Below are positions 2-19,280 of a stretch of 64,000 bases of DNA, piece after piece. Location of the stretch: positions 372,001 to 436,000 of the forward strand of contig JABSSW010000018.1 of NCBI GenBank assembly GCA_018902385.1, read 5' to 3'. The notes below the pieces were generated by a model that was given only the letters and a program-made list of their open reading frames with translations, was not told the DNA's origin and did no database searches. A program made the translations under genes and the position numbers. This stretch comes from Physcia stellaris (taxonomy: Eukaryota > Ascomycota > Lecanoromycetes > Caliciales > Physciaceae). Numbering within the stretch: position 1 is the first letter of the stretch; each line of letters starts with the position of its first letter.

Positions 2-724
2 TATGACAGCGATCCAGAGCTCAAAGGGCTGATCATGAGGAGAGATGCGGCTCTCTTTGATGGCTTATTCGATCGAGAAGACGACGTCACAGAGGTAAGT
101 CGCGATGCTAGCCGGTCACTCGCAATTTCTGTCATCCTGAAGTACAGTTCATTAATCTGACCTCTCTCGAGCCTGATGTCAAGCTTAATCAACAGCAGTG
201 CTGACCAAAAACAGCCCACGTCCCGTCAATCCCTCGCTCTTCTACTTGCGTGCCGCAAACGCCTTCCAGAAATTGTCAAAATCTGCCTTGACAAATTTGC
301 AGACCCAACTGTTACTGGCGACGATGGACTGGGGGCCATTCACAACGCTATTGGCACAGCAGACGTAGTGCAGGAGTCTTCGGAAACAATAGAAATTCTG
401 GCTATGTTGATAGATAAAGGGGTGGATCCCTCGGCTTGTGACTGTACGAGAGAGCGATTAAGGCCCCTACACCGGGCTGCAATGACGAAAAACGTTGGTG
501 CTATGAGGTTCTTGCTTGAGAAGTATCCAGATAAGGTCAATCTGGTCGATGCCGAGGGAAAAACAGCGCTGTATCATGCATGTGCAACACCAGACCAGAA
601 GAAGCCGCTGATTGAAGAAATGGTTCATAGAGGCGCAAACTTTGCCGGCGAATCTAGGCCCCCTATGCCAGATCGCGAAGGGAAAAAATTAGCTAGGTAC
701 TTGGATGAAAAGAACCTCAGGTAG
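2..724 (+). CDS. Ankyrin-repeat protein, C-terminal part (cut by window edge)
   Basis: The 5' end lies outside the window. Two exons are visible, 2-94 and 215-724, joined in phase 0. The intron 95-214 starts GTAAGT and ends ACAG, with a CTGAC branch point about 12 nt before the acceptor. The second exon encodes ankyrin-like helices: a GLGAIHNAIG stretch, then LRPLHRAAMTKNVGAMRFLL, then GKTALYHACA. The protein ends in a charged tail at the stop at 724. Ankyrin repeats bind other proteins; in fungi they often form the C-terminal sensor of NLRs, so this may be the tail of a larger STAND protein, but no NACHT domain is visible here. The ankyrin call is fairly sure; the overall function is unknown. 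Confidence 0.6.
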
Positions 725-9430: not shown

Positions 9431-11006
9431 GACGAAATCCTCGCGGCCGAAGGCCTAGGCCAGTAGCTGGAGGAAAAGTGCGAAAAATCACGTTCTGGTG
9501 GGCGTTGGGGTCTTGTCTAGGCTTGCCACACCTTAAGAAGCACCCAAAGAAAAGGGTGTTATGGCGATCCATACACTACTATGACTTAAGCGAGCCTGAC
9601 CAAAAGACACGGTACGAGCATCCCAGAGCTGAAATAAGAGACAATCTGTGGCTTATAAGAAGCAAATCACGACCAGGTCCCCGAGTCAAGATACCTAAAA
9701 GACCGAGGTTGTGCCCAGCGGGACGCCAGGATATTGTTATGGGAGATGCGAGGAGCCTCGAATAATTCTCATTTAACGGTTGCAAGATCCAATCGGTTCT
9801 GGTCAGATCACAACTGTCGTAGTGTCGGTAGCGGCAACGGGAAAGCTTCCCCTTCCCTAAGAATCTTTCCAACCCTGCGCTAGAGCTAATAGGCCCCAAT
9901 CTGATCTGAAAGCAAAGCCTTTTACCCCGGCTCATTAAAAAATGGATGAGGACAATTGCTGTGGCTCATGGTATGTTTCGCCTTCGCTCTATGTCAAGGA
10001 TCTTTTGGGGAAGGACGATTCGAGATCCCACTCTCAATACGTAGATAAAAGATATTTCGTCTTCCACTCACTCCTTCAATCCATCAAAAGGCTGTCAGAG
10101 AAAACGAATGTCAAGCGACTTTGTGTCTCGAGATCATGACATCGATAAAGGAGTCTCGCTAATTCTGAACATGAAATTTTTGAATTGATAATCGTCTGGA
10201 CGATCGACAAAATAAAACGAGGAAAAGATCTATCGGCTTCTCCACACCACCCGTTTCTGGAGCCTTGAAAACCGATATCAAAACACAACACAATTGTTTT
10301 TCATAATATTATTTGTGCATAGGTATGTCCATCAATGTCCTGTCGAATTAGCCATCAAGGTGCACCAGATGATTGGTATACAAGCTGGCTTTTGCCACTA
10401 TGTCAAAACGTAGGTTGTCGGTTGCTTGATGTTTCCGTCCATGTAAAAATCAGCTCCCCTCATGTAAAAATGAAATAAAATGTGTATGCTCATTTCAGAG
10501 AACAATTGACCAACAATATCCTTGCACTCTCTACCTAGAGGATAATATAGCCTCGAGAATCGAATAGCCTCAATGACTGATATCACGCTTGATGACTGTG
10601 ACATGTCCTATGCCATTGGTACACATTGTAGTAGAGAAGCGCTTGACTCGGCAAGCAATGAGGTAAAGAAGATTCGATGGAATAAGATTCTTACATTTTG
10701 CAAGCGAGATTGTGTAAGTGTTTCATGCAAGGAGATAGCATAATGAGAGATTGGATTACCTTACTGACCTCCGACAGTACCTGGGAACGTTAGACATGGT
10801 GTGAGGCGCTTCGAAGCAAAAACGGCACAGTTCATATGCTATTGTTATTGCAGTTCTCCTTGTGTACCACTTATTGTAAGTGAATTCAAATCCACACTGC
10901 GTCAGAGGTAGCCGTGGGTCGCCCGAAATCTCCAACATGCAAAGCTGCTAGTCATCGTCCTCCTTTGACCCGAATCGCTAGCTTTAGCTTCAGCTTCGAA
11001 CCGCAA
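9431..11006. other. Intergenic, no supported gene
   Basis: Two long overlapping ORFs on opposite strands near 9480-9935 lack protein-like composition or family motifs. A possible extra 3' exon of the minus-strand hydrolase (about 10780-10930) was considered but is not well supported. Confidence 0.4.
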
Positions 11007-12137
11007 TCAGAGGTATCTGAGCCCACTTACAAAAGTATTCGCCATATGCTGTTGCTTGTTTTTCGAGTTGTCCTGTCCGGTCTGCGTGCCTCCATAATTC
11101 TTGCCCATGGTAGTGTTGGCCTGCAAATTTGGAGTCTGACTATTGTTAGTTCATTATTTGAGACTATGAGGTCTGACCTACGCCTTTGGAGAGTGTGTCA
11201 CTGCTCGCCGCCTTGATTTCTTCCATCCACTTTCTCAAGGTGTTGAGCACAATCTTGTACTTCGGATCCTCGAAGTTGTCAAATTTGCAAATCCCGGAAT
11301 GATCATCGGGTAGAGAGATGGCTTCGTGACCAACAAGTTGAGCTGACTTAGAAGGCACAATATAACCCCATTTTCGAGTGGGAAGCTCCTCGAAGAAGCA
11401 AACGACGTGGACCTGTCTCTCCCACTGATTACGTCGATTGTTCAGCCACTTGGGAAAGTCTTCACCGAGAATCTTCAGATCGTGAGAGTCTGTTTGCAAG
11501 TTGTTGAGAAGATGCTCATTGACACTGGCTGTGGGGAGGAGATGCGATAACCTTTTGAAGAAGCTTGACCATTTCGCGGTGTCAGACCCCTCAAATGGAG
11601 TACCCATGAACGCTAAAGCATCGGTGTGGTCGGCCAGTTTTCCTGCATCGTCAGGATTTTCGGAAGAAGCTTGCAATAGACTCTACCGCATGTAGTCAGT
11701 AGCGGCACAATAGCCCTGTAAGGGCAATCCACCTGTGCGCAGATGATACCGCCAAGACTATGGGCGATGAATATGATCGGACGCTTAGAAACCGCTGGAG
11801 ACTGTCTCATTCCGCTTATATCGTTTGATAGGCTTTTTGCGTGATCTTTGACGCTGTTGGCTGATGTTGGAGACAGGAAATGTCCGACGTCCCCATTGTA
11901 GCCCCAAGTGATGATACGGGCTTCAGGGATGTCCCTCGCCAGGAGGTTGTAGGGCCAAAATACTTCGCCTTTCTTCCACGTGGAGTATCGACCTCCGCCT
12001 AGACCATGCACAAAGCAGATGCCGCAGGAAATCAGTCAAAAAGTTCTCTCTTAAGAACAGATTACTTACTCCACAACAGCATGATCGGGCTGATACACCG
12101 TTTCAGCACCGGTAAGATCAGAAAATTGAGCAGCCAT
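11007..12137 (-). CDS. DUF676/SERAC1-like alpha/beta hydrolase with C-terminal RHIM-like motif
   Basis: Minus-strand exons are 12137-12070, 12021-11733, 11682-11182 and 11120-11007, about 323 residues. Hydrolase features are an N-terminal FVHGLGGGRYSTW oxyanion strand near residue 27 and the nucleophile elbow AHSLGG near residue 111, followed by FMGTPFEGSD; this is the lipase-like family often linked to fungal NLRs. The last exon encodes GKNYGGTQTGQDNSKN (about 292-307), nearly the same as the N-terminus of the divergent NLR. That layout fits the lipase-like partners with C-terminal amyloid motifs described in fungal cell-death clusters (SesB/SBP type). Intron 1 (12069-12022) has a good GTAAGT donor and branch point but ends GG where AG is needed, so the transcript may be mis-spliced. 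A donor after ANTF could lead to another 3' exon instead of the stop at 11007. Confidence 0.7.
11067..11105 (-). other. RHIM-like amyloid motif, effector side
   Basis: Encodes GKNYGGTQTGQDN at the hydrolase C-terminus, matching the NLR motif at 12977-13024 in a G-G-T-Q-x-G-Q-x-N core. The core resembles the (V/I)Q(V/I)G centre of RHIM and fungal PP motifs. Amyloid behaviour is inferred. Confidence 0.6.
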
Positions 12138-12946
12138 TTGGAATATACAGAGCTACCGATCACAGAACCAAATGAATGGGAAATTACTTGACACTAGAGA
12201 CTACAGTCGCTGGTATGTACGGATAATCTTGAATAAAGCAGTCAGAGCACGCCCAGTTGTCAGAGATGCCAAGATGCAAGACCAGGTGATCCTAACCTTG
12301 CCCTGTATGTTACCAAATATATATGCGTATCATCTATAGCTTAATTATTCCGCTGCACTGCTGTCTAGCGAATGAGAGCAAATATGACGGACAGCACCGT
12401 GGTGGATTATTTGTTAGTCACGAATAATGCACCATCCCGAATGCTGGCTCCCGTGGAGCCGGTGTACAAAGTACCTGCTCCCAACAGTCAAGCTCGTATT
12501 CGTATTGGCTGCGGTTTCTATCTCGGTGTTCACTACTTTGTGTTCGTGAATGCTGCGGAAAAGAGAAACCATAGAACGAAGATCTGTATTTGAAGCAAAG
12601 CTTATCTAGCCTCATGATACATTGAGCCAAGCAGGACACGGGGGAGCGCAGCAGACTGAGGGAATATTATGCAATGACCCATTCCCGTCCCGGTTGACCG
12701 CCGACGTGAATACGCCATGTAGCTTGCTGCTCATGTACGTAGCGAGTAGCTTATCCGACGTGGCTGTCTCGTTTGATTGCGTACGGCTGAGCATCCTGGT
12801 GTGCGCCAGCAGATGTTGTCTCCCGTTCTGCTCTCCCTAGCATATCTTTGCCCGTATGGCATCTCTGTTTTGATTGCTGTAAAATAGACGGCCACCCATG
12901 TGCTTCAAGTATCAAGTAACCACTGCAGCAGCTACGACGTTCTACA
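12138..12946. promoter_or_regulatory. Shared divergent promoter region of hydrolase and NLR
   Basis: These 809 bp separate the start codons of two genes read away from each other, so they should hold both promoters. I see no coding region and identified no specific factor site. Confidence 0.4.
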
Positions 12947-15900
12947 ATGGCACGTACAACGGCAGACTCCTCCCTTGGGCCAAGCATGGGAGGCACACAG
13001 GTTGGACAACAGAATATTTTCAATGGTCTGTGCTTAGATCTTGTGGCTGTCATCACCACTCATCACCTTAGCTAAGGTTATTGGAACCCTCCTGCTGATC
13101 TGGATGCCTTCTAGAATCGAAAAGTCGACTGCAGACGGTTACAGACTGGTTCTCGCCGATTACTTTTGCTCAAAAACAACGAGACGTGTACAGACATGAG
13201 TATTCTGGCAGCAAAGAAGGCTTTTTTGAGTTAGAAGAATTTAAGAGTTGGAGGCGTGGTGAAACTCAAGTCTTGTGGTGTTGCGGAATCGGTAGGATGG
13301 CCTTGGGCGGTGATCAAAGGAGTCAATCGCTGATACTCGACCCAACGAGTTTTTAGGTGGCAGTGGCAAGACTGTACTCACGTTAGTGATCCGCAATTCC
13401 GCATAAACATTCACAGCCTTGCAGGCAGCTGTACTGAAACTTTCTATGATCAGGTCAATGATATACGAGCACCTTCGCTCCATTCAGCCGCCTACGGCAA
13501 AGGTTGGCATTGCCTGTATCTATTGCGATAGCCAGCAACAGCATACGCAATCACCTCAGAACTTACTTGCGAGCTTGTGGTCCTTTCTCCATCTCAGCAG
13601 TGACGGAACGGTGCCTTCATATATGGAAAACGCCTACCGCGTCCACACCCAGCAGAGTACAAAGCCTGACCTCGACCAGATCCAGTTTATCATTCAATCC
13701 AAGATCGACGACCTCGAGAAGGTCTACATTCTCATTGATGGTCTAGATGAATATTTGGACGCAGACCAGCGAGAAACATTCATCGATTCTGTCAAAGGAC
13801 TCCTGGATAACTCAAATACTGGCCAGGCAAAAGTTAGTGTCCTTGTCACCTCTCGTCTTGAACAGCAATATCTCCATGGTACATCTGTTCAGATACGGGC
13901 AACCCCGGAAGAGATTACCTCGATGATCCAAAAACGCATTCAAGGCCCTAGATCCTTCAGGCACAGCCTTCGACCTCAAGTAGTCGAGAGCCCCCAACTA
14001 CAGGCTGAAATCCTCACCAAAATTGCCGACAAAGCAAAGGGAATGTTTCTAATCGCTGATTTGCACATGAAGTCTCTAAGATCCATCACCAATATCAGAG
14101 ACCTGCGTGAAGCACTCGACAGGCTGCCTGAAAAATTGGACCAGTACTACGAAGATGCGTGGTCCAGGATATCCAGTCAAGAGCAACACCTCAAACAAAT
14201 CGCCCACAATACGATATCCTGGCTTTGTCTTTCACGGCGGCAACTCAAAATCGACGAGCTTCGTCACGCTCTTGCAACTCGTCTTGGAGACAAAGACTTC
14301 TGCGCTGAAAGTTTGATCGCAGTCGGGGACATTCTAGAAATATGTCAAGGTCTTGTCGTGGTGGAGCAACACAGCCACATTATCAGGCTTATGCATTCTA
14401 CCACCCGCGAATTCTTTTTTAATCGGCATAATCAGTTTTTGAAAAACAGTGCGACTTATCTTGTCCAAACATGCCTGGCATATCTTTGTCTTGATGTCTT
14501 CGATGGAGAGCCTTGTCATTATAGGGACCTGGAGAGCGTAGACATGCATGCCAACCCAGGCGAGCGCGTCTCCAGGCGCAGCATACTTTCCTTCCGGTTG
14601 GAAGAATATCCACTCCTAGATTATGCAGCTGAAAATTGGGGGTTTCATGCATGCGACAATCCCGGAGCCTCTCTCCTCCTCATCGTTGCCTTCCTTTGTT
14701 CGAATCACAAGTTAGAAAATGCCCACTTGGTGCATCCCCAGATTTTCCATCCATCCAATCGCCGCCATGTACAGAATAATGATGGCATCCTTGCAGACTT
14801 GTTCCCCGTTCGTGTTGCTATATCTTTCGGCCTTGAGCAAACCGCTTGCTATATGGTAGAGCGGTTCTGGCAATTCCTTCAACAGCAGCCAATCAAAGAT
14901 CACTGGCTTAAATCTTTACTCGAGGCTGTGGAGCTTGGTCAATTGAGTGTTGTAGATGCCTTACTCGATGCTGGTGTAGAGCCTTATCCAGCAGGCGAGC
15001 TTCCACTAACGACACTCGATCGTATGTTCCTGTATGAAGCAGAAAGACCAAAGACGGCACTGGACAAAAGCGTTTTCTACGGGCATGATGCGATTGCCGG
15101 TCTTCTATTGCAAAGGGGAAGTAGGGCAAGTATCACACCGCGGACAATCCAGTTTGCCGTGTTTGCTGATAATCTCGAAATACTCAGCTTCTACCTATCT
15201 GAGCCTAAAGATCAGAACAAACTCGTTGATGCAGATGTGATCCTTCATTTGGCCACCAAACTGGGAAAACTTAACATTGTTCAACTAAGTCTAAACCATG
15301 GTGCCCGGATTGAGTCGGTTGTTGCTCAAGAAGGCTGTACAGCATTAGGACTAGCGGTGACTCACGGACACAGCGAAATTGTTCAATATCTTTTGGATGC
15401 AGGGGCTGACATGTCGATCGAACTCTTTGATCCATCAGAGGAGTCAGAAACTACACAGAGCATAGTTCAACGTGCTGCTACGTGCCAACAAGTTTTCCTA
15501 AACCGTTTGGAACTTGTGAATGAATACACATTGACGTATAGCTCTGCAGATATGATTGATGGCGCGCTCGCACATTTCAGGGAGCGTCTAAGAGGTTGGC
15601 TCGTAAAGGAACCAGAACCGCTCAAACTGCTCCAAGATTCGGACTTCTTAGCCGCTCTTCGTGAGGACTCCGAGTCTGGAAAAATTATCAGCATGCTTTT
15701 AGACCGCGGCGCGGATCTCTCCGTACGTCAAGAAGATGGCGAAAGCCTTCTGCACTTAGCGATTATCAGCAAGCCGAGATTGAACGCTGTGCTAGAGCAT
15801 CTCAAGCGTCTCCCCAACCCCCCCATCAGCGTAAGCACGCGGGACTATAATGGACGGACCCCACTTCATTATGCAGCTGCAGCGTGTAATGTTGATTCCA

Positions 15901-16367
15901 TGGAGCTTTTGATCCAGTTTGGAGCCGACATATCTGAGAGAGACAATTCTGGGGCGACTACGCTACACTACGCGGTTAATAGTAGTCTGTGCGTTAAATC
16001 TGCAGTCAGACATGGGTGCAGAATTGACAATGCGCATGATTACCTAGGGACCGCGCTGCAATTTGCCAAATCTCTCCAAGATCTGAAAGAAGATGTGGTT
16101 GAAGAACTTGAGAGATCAATCGAAGGTCTCACTGAGAGGGGAGATCCCCAGCCAAAATCATTTCATGAGGATCCGGTTCTTCCCAATCCTAAGTCCGAGG
16201 AGTTCGAGAGTTGGATGGATGCTAAAAGCAATGAAAGCCTGCTTCGTAGTGCGAATATCCAGAATTGTCTTGAAGGTTCGCAACAGCACGGGTATGTTGA
16301 GATGATTGCGGAGCAGGATGCCGACGCAAAGAAGAGAACGAGGTCGTGGATTCTGGTCGAAGAGTGA
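12947..16367 (+). CDS. NLR (STAND) protein: RHIM-like motif - NACHT - ankyrin
   Basis: Exons 12947-13025, 13115-13291, 13357-13381 and 13454-16367 join in frame to 1064 residues with GT-AG introns. Residues 11-26 read GPSMGGTQVGQQNIFN, the motif shared with the adjacent hydrolase. The linker DWFSPITFAQKQRDVYR is typical of fungal NACHT proteins. Walker A is GIGGSGKTVL (84-93) and Walker B is YILIDGLDEY (about 185-195). A winged-helix-like region (WLCLSRRQLKIDELRHALA) and LLDYAAENWGFHA follow. The C-terminal half has degenerate ankyrin repeats, including CTALGLAVTHGHSEIVQYLL and GRTPLHYAAAACNVDSMELL. In established examples, ligand-induced oligomerisation lets the N-terminal motif template the same fold in an effector, triggering heterokaryon incompatibility or defence. 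The reading frame is intact. The start is the first ATG after an in-frame stop. Confidence 0.85.
12977..13024 (+). other. RHIM-like amyloid motif, receptor side
   Basis: Encodes GPSMGGTQVGQQNIFN at residues 11-26 of the NLR, on its own small exon. GTQVGQQN parallels the GVQVGDNN type core of RHIM motifs. Paired with 11067-11105. Confidence 0.65.
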
Positions 16368-17186: not shown

Positions 17187-19280
17187 ATGTTCGGAAAATG
17201 GAGTAAAGCTCATAGTATGTACCTACGGCATAGCTGGTTGGTGGTAATAGTGCTGGCTATCTGTATTCGTCCAACCTCGGCAGATGGCAACATGACATTG
17301 GCAGAAGCTGAGAATGCGAGAGTGTTTGGAAAGCACAATGTCGTTCAGTATTTGGTGTATCCAGATAGCTTATCGCGGATCAACATTCTTGAACGCGATA
17401 TTGAAGTCCTCTTTGACCACCAAAATGTTCAGGTGATTCGGGACTACCGCTTCGCTATACGGTTCTGGCTCATCGTAATGACCTTCCCACAATACAACGA
17501 GTTGAGAAGAAGACACCCTGAGGTGGGTCGCTAATGCATACATTGAATGCAACGCTGATCAGAGCGGTAGATCATTATGCAGGAAAATGTTAGAGCTGTC
17601 TTGCGAAAAGATGCTCCAGGCTCTGGACTTGACACATCCTCAAACATCAGCTCAAATGACAACAGCATGTTCAATAGTAGTCACAGACGAGACATCAACC
17701 CTTCCAGCTCAAAAACAGCCAAGTCCACTACAATTGCACGACCCGACGACACAGTGCTGTGTCAGAGCGATGCGTCAGATAATCTCAAAGTGGTCTCGTG
17801 GCCTAAAACTCGAATGTTTTCGGTGCGTATTTTCGAAGCTGCGTTTCTCCTGCGAGTGGATATCGGGGTGCCTAGAACTACCATAGTAGTACCCTTAGCC
17901 GTATAAGTTCATGTAGGATGATAATAGCCAGAGCATAAAAAGGCTGACTTCAACGTCACGGGTAGACAAATCCAAGATGCTACAGTTTCGATGCTCGAGC
18001 CGGACGACATGTTGTGCTTTACGTTATAGAAGACGGTATCGCAAATATTCAGTCGTCTCGGGTTCCAGTGAGTGTGCTTCAGAAGCTTCTTCCTCCCCTT
18101 AGTGATTGAATTAGGAATTTCCTTCTCACAGGGTATCTTGGATCTACGGTGCTCCAGGAGGTCTCGATGACCCCACACTGCCGGTCCCCACGGACCACCA
18201 TCCACGATCTCATGGCAGTTGTGTGGCTAGCCTTGCAGCCGGGTAAGATCCATCTGTTTATCCTTTTCCTTTTCTGTAATACCGCAGCTCTCCGATAGCA
18301 CTTCATAGTCATCAGCGGGCTAATAACACATCTCCACAGGACAAAGAACGGCGTATCGAAGTATACTTCCATAGGTAGGTAAAATCAAGCCAGCTCAGAT
18401 CTCAACTGTAACTCGAGACTTTGGTCTTACCTATTGAAAATCTAAAGCTGATCCCTCCTTTGGGATACTGTTTAAAAAAGGACTCGCTGATAGATGATTC
18501 GATAGTCGTCGTGAAGTCAGCAGAATACATTGCCGACGTTGAATGGGCTTTCCTCGCGATCGAGAAGAACATGCGGCAGCACCCAGCCAGAAGAGCCGTA
18601 ATTGTTTTTGCCTCCGCCTCCGACAACATCTACGGTCCAACGACACTGGTTCCGTACCCTTGGCTCAGCATACGGGAGATAATGAAATCCATCATCGATC
18701 TCAATGGCATCATCGTTGTAGGCGCCGGCAACAGACGAGACGGCGGGACCAGAAGAGTTGTAGACACCCTTCCTGCTCTGTTCAACGGTCCAGATCTACC
18801 TCTAGTTGTTGCTGGATCTGTCGATAATGGAGGGATTCTAGCGCCTTTCTCGCAAGGACCGGATCACGTCGATACATGGGCGCCAGGAGTGGAAGTGTCC
18901 TGCACGAGACCCATCATGGCTGCGCAGATGGGAACAGGGACGAGTTATTCGGCGGGAATGGTGAGTCTGTGCTTTCGTCATCCTTTCTCCGGTTTCTCTT
19001 TACACATAGCTGCAAATAACTTGTCGAAGCAGAAGCTGACAGCAGATGAACCATCTAGGTTGCAGGCCTCGCCGCTTATTTCCTAGGGTTTGCCGACCCT
19101 CCATTTCCGGTAGGAGCAGGCAGCACAGCACGAAACTTCAAGACCTTCCTAGGAACCAAGGCTAGCTGGCGGCGGCGGCCAATGTTGAGCCCGAATGTAA
19201 TCTGGAACCGGGAAAACGGGTTTAGAAGTCTTCTACGGAATTCTGACATGCCATTGCCGTCCAATATTTCGACTTCTTGA
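17187..19280 (+). CDS. Secreted subtilisin-like protein (S8) with Asp-to-Glu change
   Basis: Exons: 17187-17522, 17571-17822, 17966-18067, 18115-18242, a short exon from 18340, 18418-18960 and 19059-19280. The N-terminus is a signal peptide (SWLVVIVLAICIRPTSADG). The S8 His motif HGSCVASLAAG (about residue 263), the oxyanion Asn in VVGAGN and the Ser motif MGTGTSYSAGMVAGLAAYFLG are present. At the Asp motif the sequence reads YVIEDGI where active enzymes read VIDTG, so the catalytic Asp aligns with Glu. The exon starting at 18340 is ambiguous. A canonical donor at 18353 keeps the frame but drops GVSKYTSI; the longer exon ending near 18373 would need a non-AG acceptor at about 18415. It may be a weak protease, a pseudoenzyme or an early pseudogene. 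Confidence 0.65.

What the first reader, a model, noticed from the sequence alone, without database searches (positions are those of the whole stretch)
11007..16367. Divergent NLR-hydrolase pair sharing a RHIM-like amyloid motif
Seen in sequence: the NLR begins with GPSMGGTQVGQQNIFN on a small first exon, and the adjacent, oppositely transcribed hydrolase ends with GKNYGGTQTGQDNSKN. Established knowledge: fungal NLRs can template an amyloid fold in an effector that carries the same motif at its far end, and NLR and effector genes are often neighbours (HET-S/NWD2, the sigma-motif SesA/SesB system, and the RHIM-related PP motif of HELLP/SBP/PNT1 in Chaetomium). Inference: this is such a pair, with the hydrolase as the executioner. 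The GTQxGQxN core resembles RHIM more than the HET-s or sigma motifs. I cannot say whether this exact variant is described.
Basis: partly seen in the sequence, partly recalled or inferred. Interest (0 to 1): 0.88.

Follow-up and report, generated by a model that had tools for sequence, protein, structure and literature searches.

The report
Fungal receptor-enzyme pair sharing a tag
A fungus, probably a lichen-forming one, has back-to-back genes for an immune-type receptor and a lipase-like enzyme that share a short amyloid-like tag, by which the receptor probably switches the enzyme on; this is a new variant of a signalling scheme known from other fungi.

Summary
A + strand gene (12947-16367) encodes a NACHT-ankyrin NLR starting with GPSMGGTQVGQQN; its divergent neighbour (12137-10948) encodes a SesB-like hydrolase with GKNYGGTQTGQDN in its tail. 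The similarity beats all 20,000 shuffles; a degenerate pattern hits only these two sites in 44 Mb. Lichen-fungus relatives keep the genes adjacent in 5 named species, and the motif is better conserved than its flanks. A second divergent pair (contig C20) has motifs that match each other but hardly the window's; its hydrolase motif matches Pfam's PP profile weakly (E 0.004, under cut-off). I read both as NLR-lipase pairs of the Chaetomium PNT1/SBP kind. The window motif is a variant: GxQxG core, but neither PP's flanking Asn spacing nor the RHIM tetrad, and no match to the Pfam PP, RHIM or sigma profiles. No HELLP-like partner was found near the pair. Amyloid folding, templating and killing are inferred. 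The hydrolase's first intron lacks an AG at its 3' end, so this allele may be inactive. New variant of a known kind.

The parts
12947..16367 (+). NLR gene, 1064 aa: motif, NACHT-type NTPase (NPHP3_N), winged helix (GPIID_WHD), ankyrin repeats; exons 12947-13025, 13115-13291, 13357-13381, 13454-16367
   Evidence: gene model; Pfam; 21 close homologs at 42-57% identity, the named ones from lichen fungi
12977..13024 (+). NLR-side motif GPSMGGTQVGQQNIFN, in exon 1
   Evidence: sequence; present in 7 of the 8 relatives' models that extend before the NTPase, the eighth starting at exon 2
10948..12137 (-). SesB-like alpha/beta serine hydrolase; exons 12137-12070, 12021-11733, 11682-11182, 11120-11031, 10977-10948
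   Evidence: homologs; Ser/Glu/His columns in relatives
11031..11120 (-). hydrolase exon 4, the motif exon; GKNYGGTQTGQDN lies at 11105-11067
   Evidence: motif in 8 of the 18 hydrolase hits with 49% identity or more
12022..12069 (-). hydrolase intron 1: GT donor, no AG at its 3' end
   Evidence: three relatives' models that start within this intron have Ser at that point, consistent with an ordinary acceptor (P0001, P0002, P0006; inference)
12138..12946 (.). intergenic region between the two divergent start codons

Best explanation
A two-component NLR-lipase signalling pair of the PP/RHIM-like kind. Proposed mechanism: a ligand is sensed through the ankyrin repeats; the NTPase domain oligomerises the NLR; the clustered N-terminal motifs fold into a short cross-beta amyloid; this templates the same fold in the motif on the flexible tail of the neighbouring SesB-like hydrolase; the hydrolase is thereby concentrated or activated and attacks lipids or other esters, probably as a cell-death or non-self response. 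Shown here: gene layout, domains, shared motif, its higher conservation than its flanks, adjacency in relatives, and a second pair with its own matched motif. Inferred: amyloid formation, templating, enzyme activity, cell death.
For: Shared motif far above chance. Mean pairwise identity: hydrolase motif 0.84 against linker 0.41, tail 0.38, catalytic part 0.67 (9 sequences, three of them close Flavoplaca relatives); NLR motif 0.73 against 0.26 before and 0.31 after (8 sequences). Adjacent genes in 5 named species by consecutive locus tags, a sixth pair by equal contig length. Second divergent pair in the genome with its own matched motif: within-pair scores 55 (window) and 69 (C20), 0 of 5000 shuffles each; cross-pair 31 and 30, reached by 167 and 191 of 5000. 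The C20 hydrolase motif is the only candidate of the PP profile in the genome. Model of the relative P0003: motif at residue 317 in a stretch 309-356 with pLDDT under 50. Ser 52 of 52, Glu 52 of 52, His 51 of 52 with one gap, in 52 homologs. P0162 of Lasallia pustulata has a SesB-like start (read by eye) in front of NACHT-type and ankyrin domains. Precedent: CgPNT1/CgSBP/CgHELLP (PMC7885112, passages).
Against: Window motif matches none of the Pfam PP, sigma or RHIM profiles (shown part). HMMs built from the NLR side alone or the hydrolase side alone barely recognise the other side: best P0011 E 0.47 (domain 0.017) and P0123 E 4, while a non-lichen hydrolase, P0095, scored 0.23 (165 proteins). 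A profile of the lichen motifs alone does not find the C20 motifs. Hydrolase intron 1 lacks an AG end. P0003 has Met for the central Gln. 15 of 21 close NLR hits and 12 of 18 close hydrolase hits have no partner identifiable from tags or contig lengths. No assay.
Confidence: 0.75

Rival explanations
1. The motif is a non-amyloid docking tag: it tethers the hydrolase to the NLR, for recruitment or inhibition, without a templated cross-beta fold.
For: Only sequence evidence exists. The two sides differ systematically: Ile/Val against Thr at +1, Gln against Asp at +4, mostly hydrophobic against Ser at +6 (17 rows), as an asymmetric interface might.
Against: GxQxG motifs in the same positions form prions in the PP systems (PMC7885112, passages); the tail of a relative is modelled with very low confidence, as expected of a flexible segment; the C20 hydrolase motif touches the PP profile.
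Confidence: 0.15
2. Compatible with the main reading, about this allele only: the hydrolase is no longer made in this strain and the NLR is left without its partner.
For: Hydrolase intron 1 has no AG at its 3' end, and the nearby AGs I looked at by eye would give a very short intron or shift the frame.
Against: The other introns look ordinary, the downstream exons are open and the motif is kept; relatives appear to have ordinary acceptors; one base could be an assembly error; rare non-AG acceptors exist (recalled).
Confidence: 0.35
3. The motif is a shortened sigma motif, since SesB proteins with sigma tails are homologs of this hydrolase.
For: Sigma tails also hold a GGTQ string, and 32 of the 120 listed hydrolase homologs carry PF17106.
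Against: A sigma HMM built from those 32 tails scores at most 1.4 bits on the 15 motif-bearing relatives given (best E 0.3); hhalign probability 1.7% over 5 columns (P 0.029). NACHT_sigma matched only 2 of 17 proteins, the number of sigma controls included (P0075, P0038, both matched); no match at E<=1 in the genome.
Confidence: 0.05

Closest known systems
PP-motif clusters: HELLP/SBP/PNT1 of Chaetomium globosum, HELLP/PNT1 of Podospora anserina
   Same: NLR with N-terminal motif beside an effector with C-terminal motif; in Chaetomium one effector is a putative SesB-related lipase, SBP (the expansion of the name is recalled); GxQxG core (PMC5485727, parts 1-2 of 4 read; PMC7885112, passages)
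   Different: NACHT-ankyrin NLR here, NB-ARC-TPR for Podospora PNT1; no HELLP-like neighbour found; PP's NxGxQxGxN spacing absent (N at -4 and at +4 in 0 of 17 rows each); Pfam PP profile misses the window motif
sigma system SesA/SesB/Het-eN of Nectria haematococca
   Same: SesB-type hydrolase linked to an NLR (PMC5485727)
   Different: Motif not related by profile; sigma is about 40 residues, this motif about 15-20
Mammalian RHIM (RIPK1/RIPK3)
   Same: GxQxG; Asn five residues before the central Gln in 13 of 17 rows, the spacing of RIPK1 N535/Q540 and RIPK3 N454/Q459 (PMC9444067, passages)
   Different: Tetrad (V/I)Q(V/I/L/C)G in 0 of 17 rows; the NLR side reads (T/A/F)Q(I/V)G, the hydrolase side (T/I/S)QTG, once Met for Gln

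Membership tests
PP amyloid signalling motif (Pfam PF17046, misnamed Ses_B) | G-x-Q-x-G core | tested here: met
   16 of 17 rows
PP amyloid signalling motif (Pfam PF17046, misnamed Ses_B) | pseudopalindrome NxGxQxGxN | tested here: not met
   N at -4: 0 of 17; N at +4: 0 of 17; N at -5: 13; N at +5: 9; pattern from PMC9815663
PP amyloid signalling motif (Pfam PF17046, misnamed Ses_B) | match to the Pfam profile | tested here: not met
   Two window peptides and P0001, P0003, P0010, P0011: none (filters drop most matches above about E 0.1). Not among the 25 of 34 families shown. The C20 hydrolase motif gives E 0.004, 17.5 bits, cut-off 23.2; genome-wide E 0.68, the only candidate
PP amyloid signalling motif (Pfam PF17046, misnamed Ses_B) | motif at the NLR N-terminus and at the effector C-terminus, genes adjacent | tested here: met
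PP amyloid signalling motif (Pfam PF17046, misnamed Ses_B) | prion or fibre formation and activation of the effector | not testable with these tools
   needs bench work
RHIM | core tetrad (V/I)Q(V/I/L/C)G | tested here: not met
   0 of 17 rows; consensus from PMC9444067
RHIM | match to Pfam RHIM (PF12721) | tested here: inconclusive
   none for the peptides or the genome, but no positive control rang
sigma motif | match to NACHT_sigma (PF17106) | tested here: not met
   the two sigma controls matched
HET-s/HRAM | 21-residue HET-s-related repeats, typically two on the effector | tested here: inconclusive
   no HET-s family among matches of the two window peptides; no dedicated HRAM profile was available
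SesB-like hydrolase | homology to SesB with Ser, acid and His of an alpha/beta hydrolase | tested here: met
   SesB P0075 E 6.9e-41, 37% identity; Ser 52/52, Glu 52/52, His 51/52 with one gap in homologs; the window protein has AHSLGG, FFEE and DDHSG
fungal NLR | NACHT-type NTPase, winged helix and repeats | tested here: met
   NPHP3_N 1.3e-27, GPIID_WHD 6.4e-06, Ank_2 4.5e-31; the NACHT model itself 1.3e-4, under its cut-off

The most novel reading that the evidence does not exclude
Lichen-forming fungi carry a separate amyloid-motif family, derived from the PP/RHIM stock but outside its profile and wired to a lipase as sole effector; and one genome runs two such NLR-lipase channels in parallel, with motifs diverged enough to be insulated from each other.
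Probability: 0.45. Interest if true: 0.7.

Novelty: new variant of a known kind. Interest (0 to 1): 0.55.

Why it matters
If true, PP/RHIM-type amyloid signalling extends to lichen-forming fungi, for which the paper searches here showed no report (open-licence papers, only the top listings seen; 'lichen' or 'Lecanoromycetes' absent from the texts of PMC9815663, PMC8086366, PMC12261475 and PMC12881547 as searched, and only in the reference list of PMC10197012). Two paralogous pairs with private motifs in one genome would be a natural test of how amyloid signalling specificity evolves, and a lipase without a HELLP neighbour makes it testable whether SesB-like enzymes can kill on their own.

Tried and rejected
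Sigma origin of the motif: rejected by profile. PDB search with the 21-position motif profile: nothing at E<=10, uninformative for so short a profile. Search for other NLRs through residues 1-45 of P0124: only itself, one candidate. A third, HELLP-like component: 32 PF17111 stretches listed in the genome, the only one on the pair's contig about 236 kb away (C18:624433), and the strict motif pattern hits only the two known sites; a diverged motif could be missed. PP spacing as a DNA pattern: 11 hits, none at this locus, 2 for the reversed control, not followed. Motif HMMs over the six frames of the 65 loci then held: only the window pair and the C20 pair above noise, and the C20 pair only when its own two rows were in the profile. 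Fold comparison with the PDB never ran.

Full report
What is there. On the + strand, four exons from 12947 to 16367 encode a 1064-residue protein: GPSMGGTQVGQQNIFN in a 79-nt first exon, then an NTPase region (Pfam NPHP3_N 1.3e-27; the NACHT model itself 1.3e-4, under its cut-off), a winged-helix match and ankyrin repeats. On the - strand, from 12137 down to 10948, lies an alpha/beta hydrolase. Its motif GKNYGGTQTGQDN (11105-11067) sits in a separate 90-nt exon, 11120-11031. Splice sites are my reading; there is no transcript.

A caveat about this copy. The first intron of the hydrolase (12069-12022) has a GT donor but no AG at its 3' end. In three relatives whose models start within this intron (P0001, P0002, P0006) the residue before ICF is Ser, which fits an ordinary acceptor (inference). 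So this allele may be inactive, or a base is an assembly error, or an unusual acceptor is used.

Not chance. The local alignment of the NLR N-terminus with the hydrolase tail scores 58; the best of 20,000 shuffled pairs reached 47; the tails of the 112 listed hydrolase homologs without a GxQxG or GxMxG string near the end reach at most 32. A degenerate DNA pattern for the motif hits two places in the 44-Mb genome, these two, and its reversed control none.

Conserved in lichen fungi. The nearest named hydrolases and NLRs come from Gallowayella, Xanthocarpia, Flavoplaca, Calogaya, Gyalolechia, Pyrenodesmia, Blastenia, Heterodermia and Lecanora, which are lichen-forming genera (recalled); the window is therefore probably from such a fungus (inference). 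120 of 525 hydrolase hits were listed. Of the 18 listed with 49% identity or more, 8 models contain the motif (P0001, P0003, P0004, P0005, P0007, P0010, P0011, P0019; P0004, P0005 and P0019 are close Flavoplaca relatives, so not independent; P0003 has Met for the central Gln). The other 10 do not show it; by their ends several stop in the intron before the motif exon. P0008 and P0011 share the same sequence up to that point, and only P0011 continues into the motif, so at least this absence is a matter of the gene model (read by eye). Of 21 close NLR hits besides the window's own, 8 models extend before the NTPase and 7 of these show the motif; the eighth (P0133) begins at exon 2; 13 start further in. 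In three of the six both models show the motif (Gallowayella, F. limonia, Lecanora); in the other three at least one model is truncated. The remaining 15 NLR and 12 hydrolase hits have no partner that tags or contig lengths reveal. Orientation in relatives could not be read.

Conservation of the motif. Mean pairwise identity in the hydrolase is 0.84 over 15 motif columns, against 0.41 in the linker before, 0.38 in the tail after and 0.67 in the catalytic part (9 sequences; 23 of 285 windows of that size are more conserved). In the NLR it is 0.73 over 13 motif columns, against 0.26 before, 0.31 after and 0.57 in the NTPase region (8 sequences; 36 of 1051 windows more conserved). Only sequences with the motif were aligned, which favours this result.

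A second pair in the same genome. Searches of the own genome with both proteins led to contig C20, where a hydrolase (36-44% identical by stretch) and an NLR (33%) again lie back to back. The hydrolase motif exon reads ...TTISGPNNQGMNAGQVNTGDG..., the NLR's first exon MASNNATTVISGENNAGLNVGQINYAAGK. The three in-frame stops in the NLR match lie close together in what looks like an intron. The two C20 motifs match each other (score 69, 0 of 5000 shuffles) but hardly the window's (31 and 30; 167 and 191 of 5000), while the window pair scores 55 (0 of 5000). The C20 hydrolase motif is the only candidate of the Pfam PP profile in the genome: 17.5 bits, E 0.004 as a peptide; 16.3 bits, E 0.68 genome-wide; both under the curated cut-off of 23.2, and at that loose level one of 14 control genomes also rang. 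Its NLR partner gives no match. I take this as modest evidence that C20 is a PP-type pair and the window pair a further diverged paralog. By eye the motifs share a register (G at -7, N at -5, G at -2, Q or N at 0, G at +2, Q at +3, N at +5), but a profile of the lichen motifs alone does not find C20.

The enzyme. In 52 aligned homologs (a selection from the listed hits) the nucleophile Ser is present in 52, a Glu in 52 and the His in 51 with one gap; the window protein has AHSLGG, FFEE and DDHSG. A model of the Heterodermia relative P0003 (mean pLDDT 70.6) is confident in much of the hydrolase core and under 50 at 116-149, except residue 139, and at 309-356, where the motif lies at 317. A sequence profile finds the esterase BlEst2 (6e-07) and a putative lipase (0.0088) in the PDB. 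SesB of Fusarium solani/haematococcum is a homolog (37%). In P0162 of Lasallia pustulata a SesB-like sequence, recognised by eye, stands in front of NACHT-type and ankyrin domains; SesB-like N-terminal domains are common on fungal NLRs (PMC12258605, passages).

Which family. PP is given as NxGxQxGxN (PMC9815663, passages); Pfam PF17046 is PP under a wrong name (PMC12261475, passages). Over 17 motif rows (8 NLR, 9 hydrolase): GxQxG 16, N at -4 none, N at +4 none, N at -5 13, N at +5 9, RHIM tetrad none. An Asn five residues before the central Gln is what RIPK1 (N535/Q540) and RIPK3 (N454/Q459) have (PMC9444067, passages). The Pfam PP, RHIM and sigma models gave no match to the window peptides; for RHIM no positive control was at hand. 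Sigma is further disfavoured. The motif should be called RHIM/PP-like, not PP and not RHIM. A published class, NLR39, is described as PP-like with a G-hydrophobic-Q-hydrophobic-G pattern in 20 sequences (PMC9815663); its logo and supplements could not be read here, so I cannot exclude that it includes this motif.

How it probably works. By analogy with PNT1/HELLP, where the NLR's motif region forms a prion that activates the effector (PMC7885112, passages, which also gives 32-48% identity between motifs within known PP clusters; here 8 of the 13 core residues are identical): ligand, NLR oligomer, amyloid seed, conversion of the hydrolase tail, enzyme activation or recruitment, lipid damage and cell death. 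Nothing beyond the sequence level is shown. [quoted passage not shown] here the only HeLo-like match on the contig is about 236 kb away and no third copy of the strict motif was found, so the hydrolase would be the only effector unless a partner elsewhere has a diverged motif.

Novelty. The scheme, NLR-lipase partnership with PP motifs, and NACHT-type NLRs with amyloid motifs (PMC12258605) are all known. Not seen in the searches (open-licence papers, top listings only; supplements not readable): occurrence in lichen fungi, this motif variant, and two private-motif NLR-lipase pairs in one genome.

Noticed in passing
L065 (own genome C20:493500-500800): Second divergent SesB-like hydrolase / NACHT-ankyrin NLR pair with its own matched motif (TVISGENNAGLNVGQIN / TTISGPNNQGMNAGQVN); only PP-profile candidate of the genome.
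   Followed up: partly
window 18412-19086 (+): Subtilase-like open frame (Peptidase_S8 E 5e-4, under cut-off) about 2 kb downstream of the NLR.
   Followed up: no
window 161-724 (+): Open frame of ankyrin repeats near the window edge, possibly part of another repeat protein.
   Followed up: no
own genome C69:94102-94860 (-), C60:124637-125449 (-), C27:505999-506754 (+): SesB-like hydrolase matches inside long open frames (1060, 1601 and 662 aa), perhaps hydrolase-NLR fusions.
   Followed up: no
protein P0137 (Heterodermia aff. obscurata): A second NLR of the same family in a genome that also has the adjacent pair P0003/P0131.
   Followed up: no
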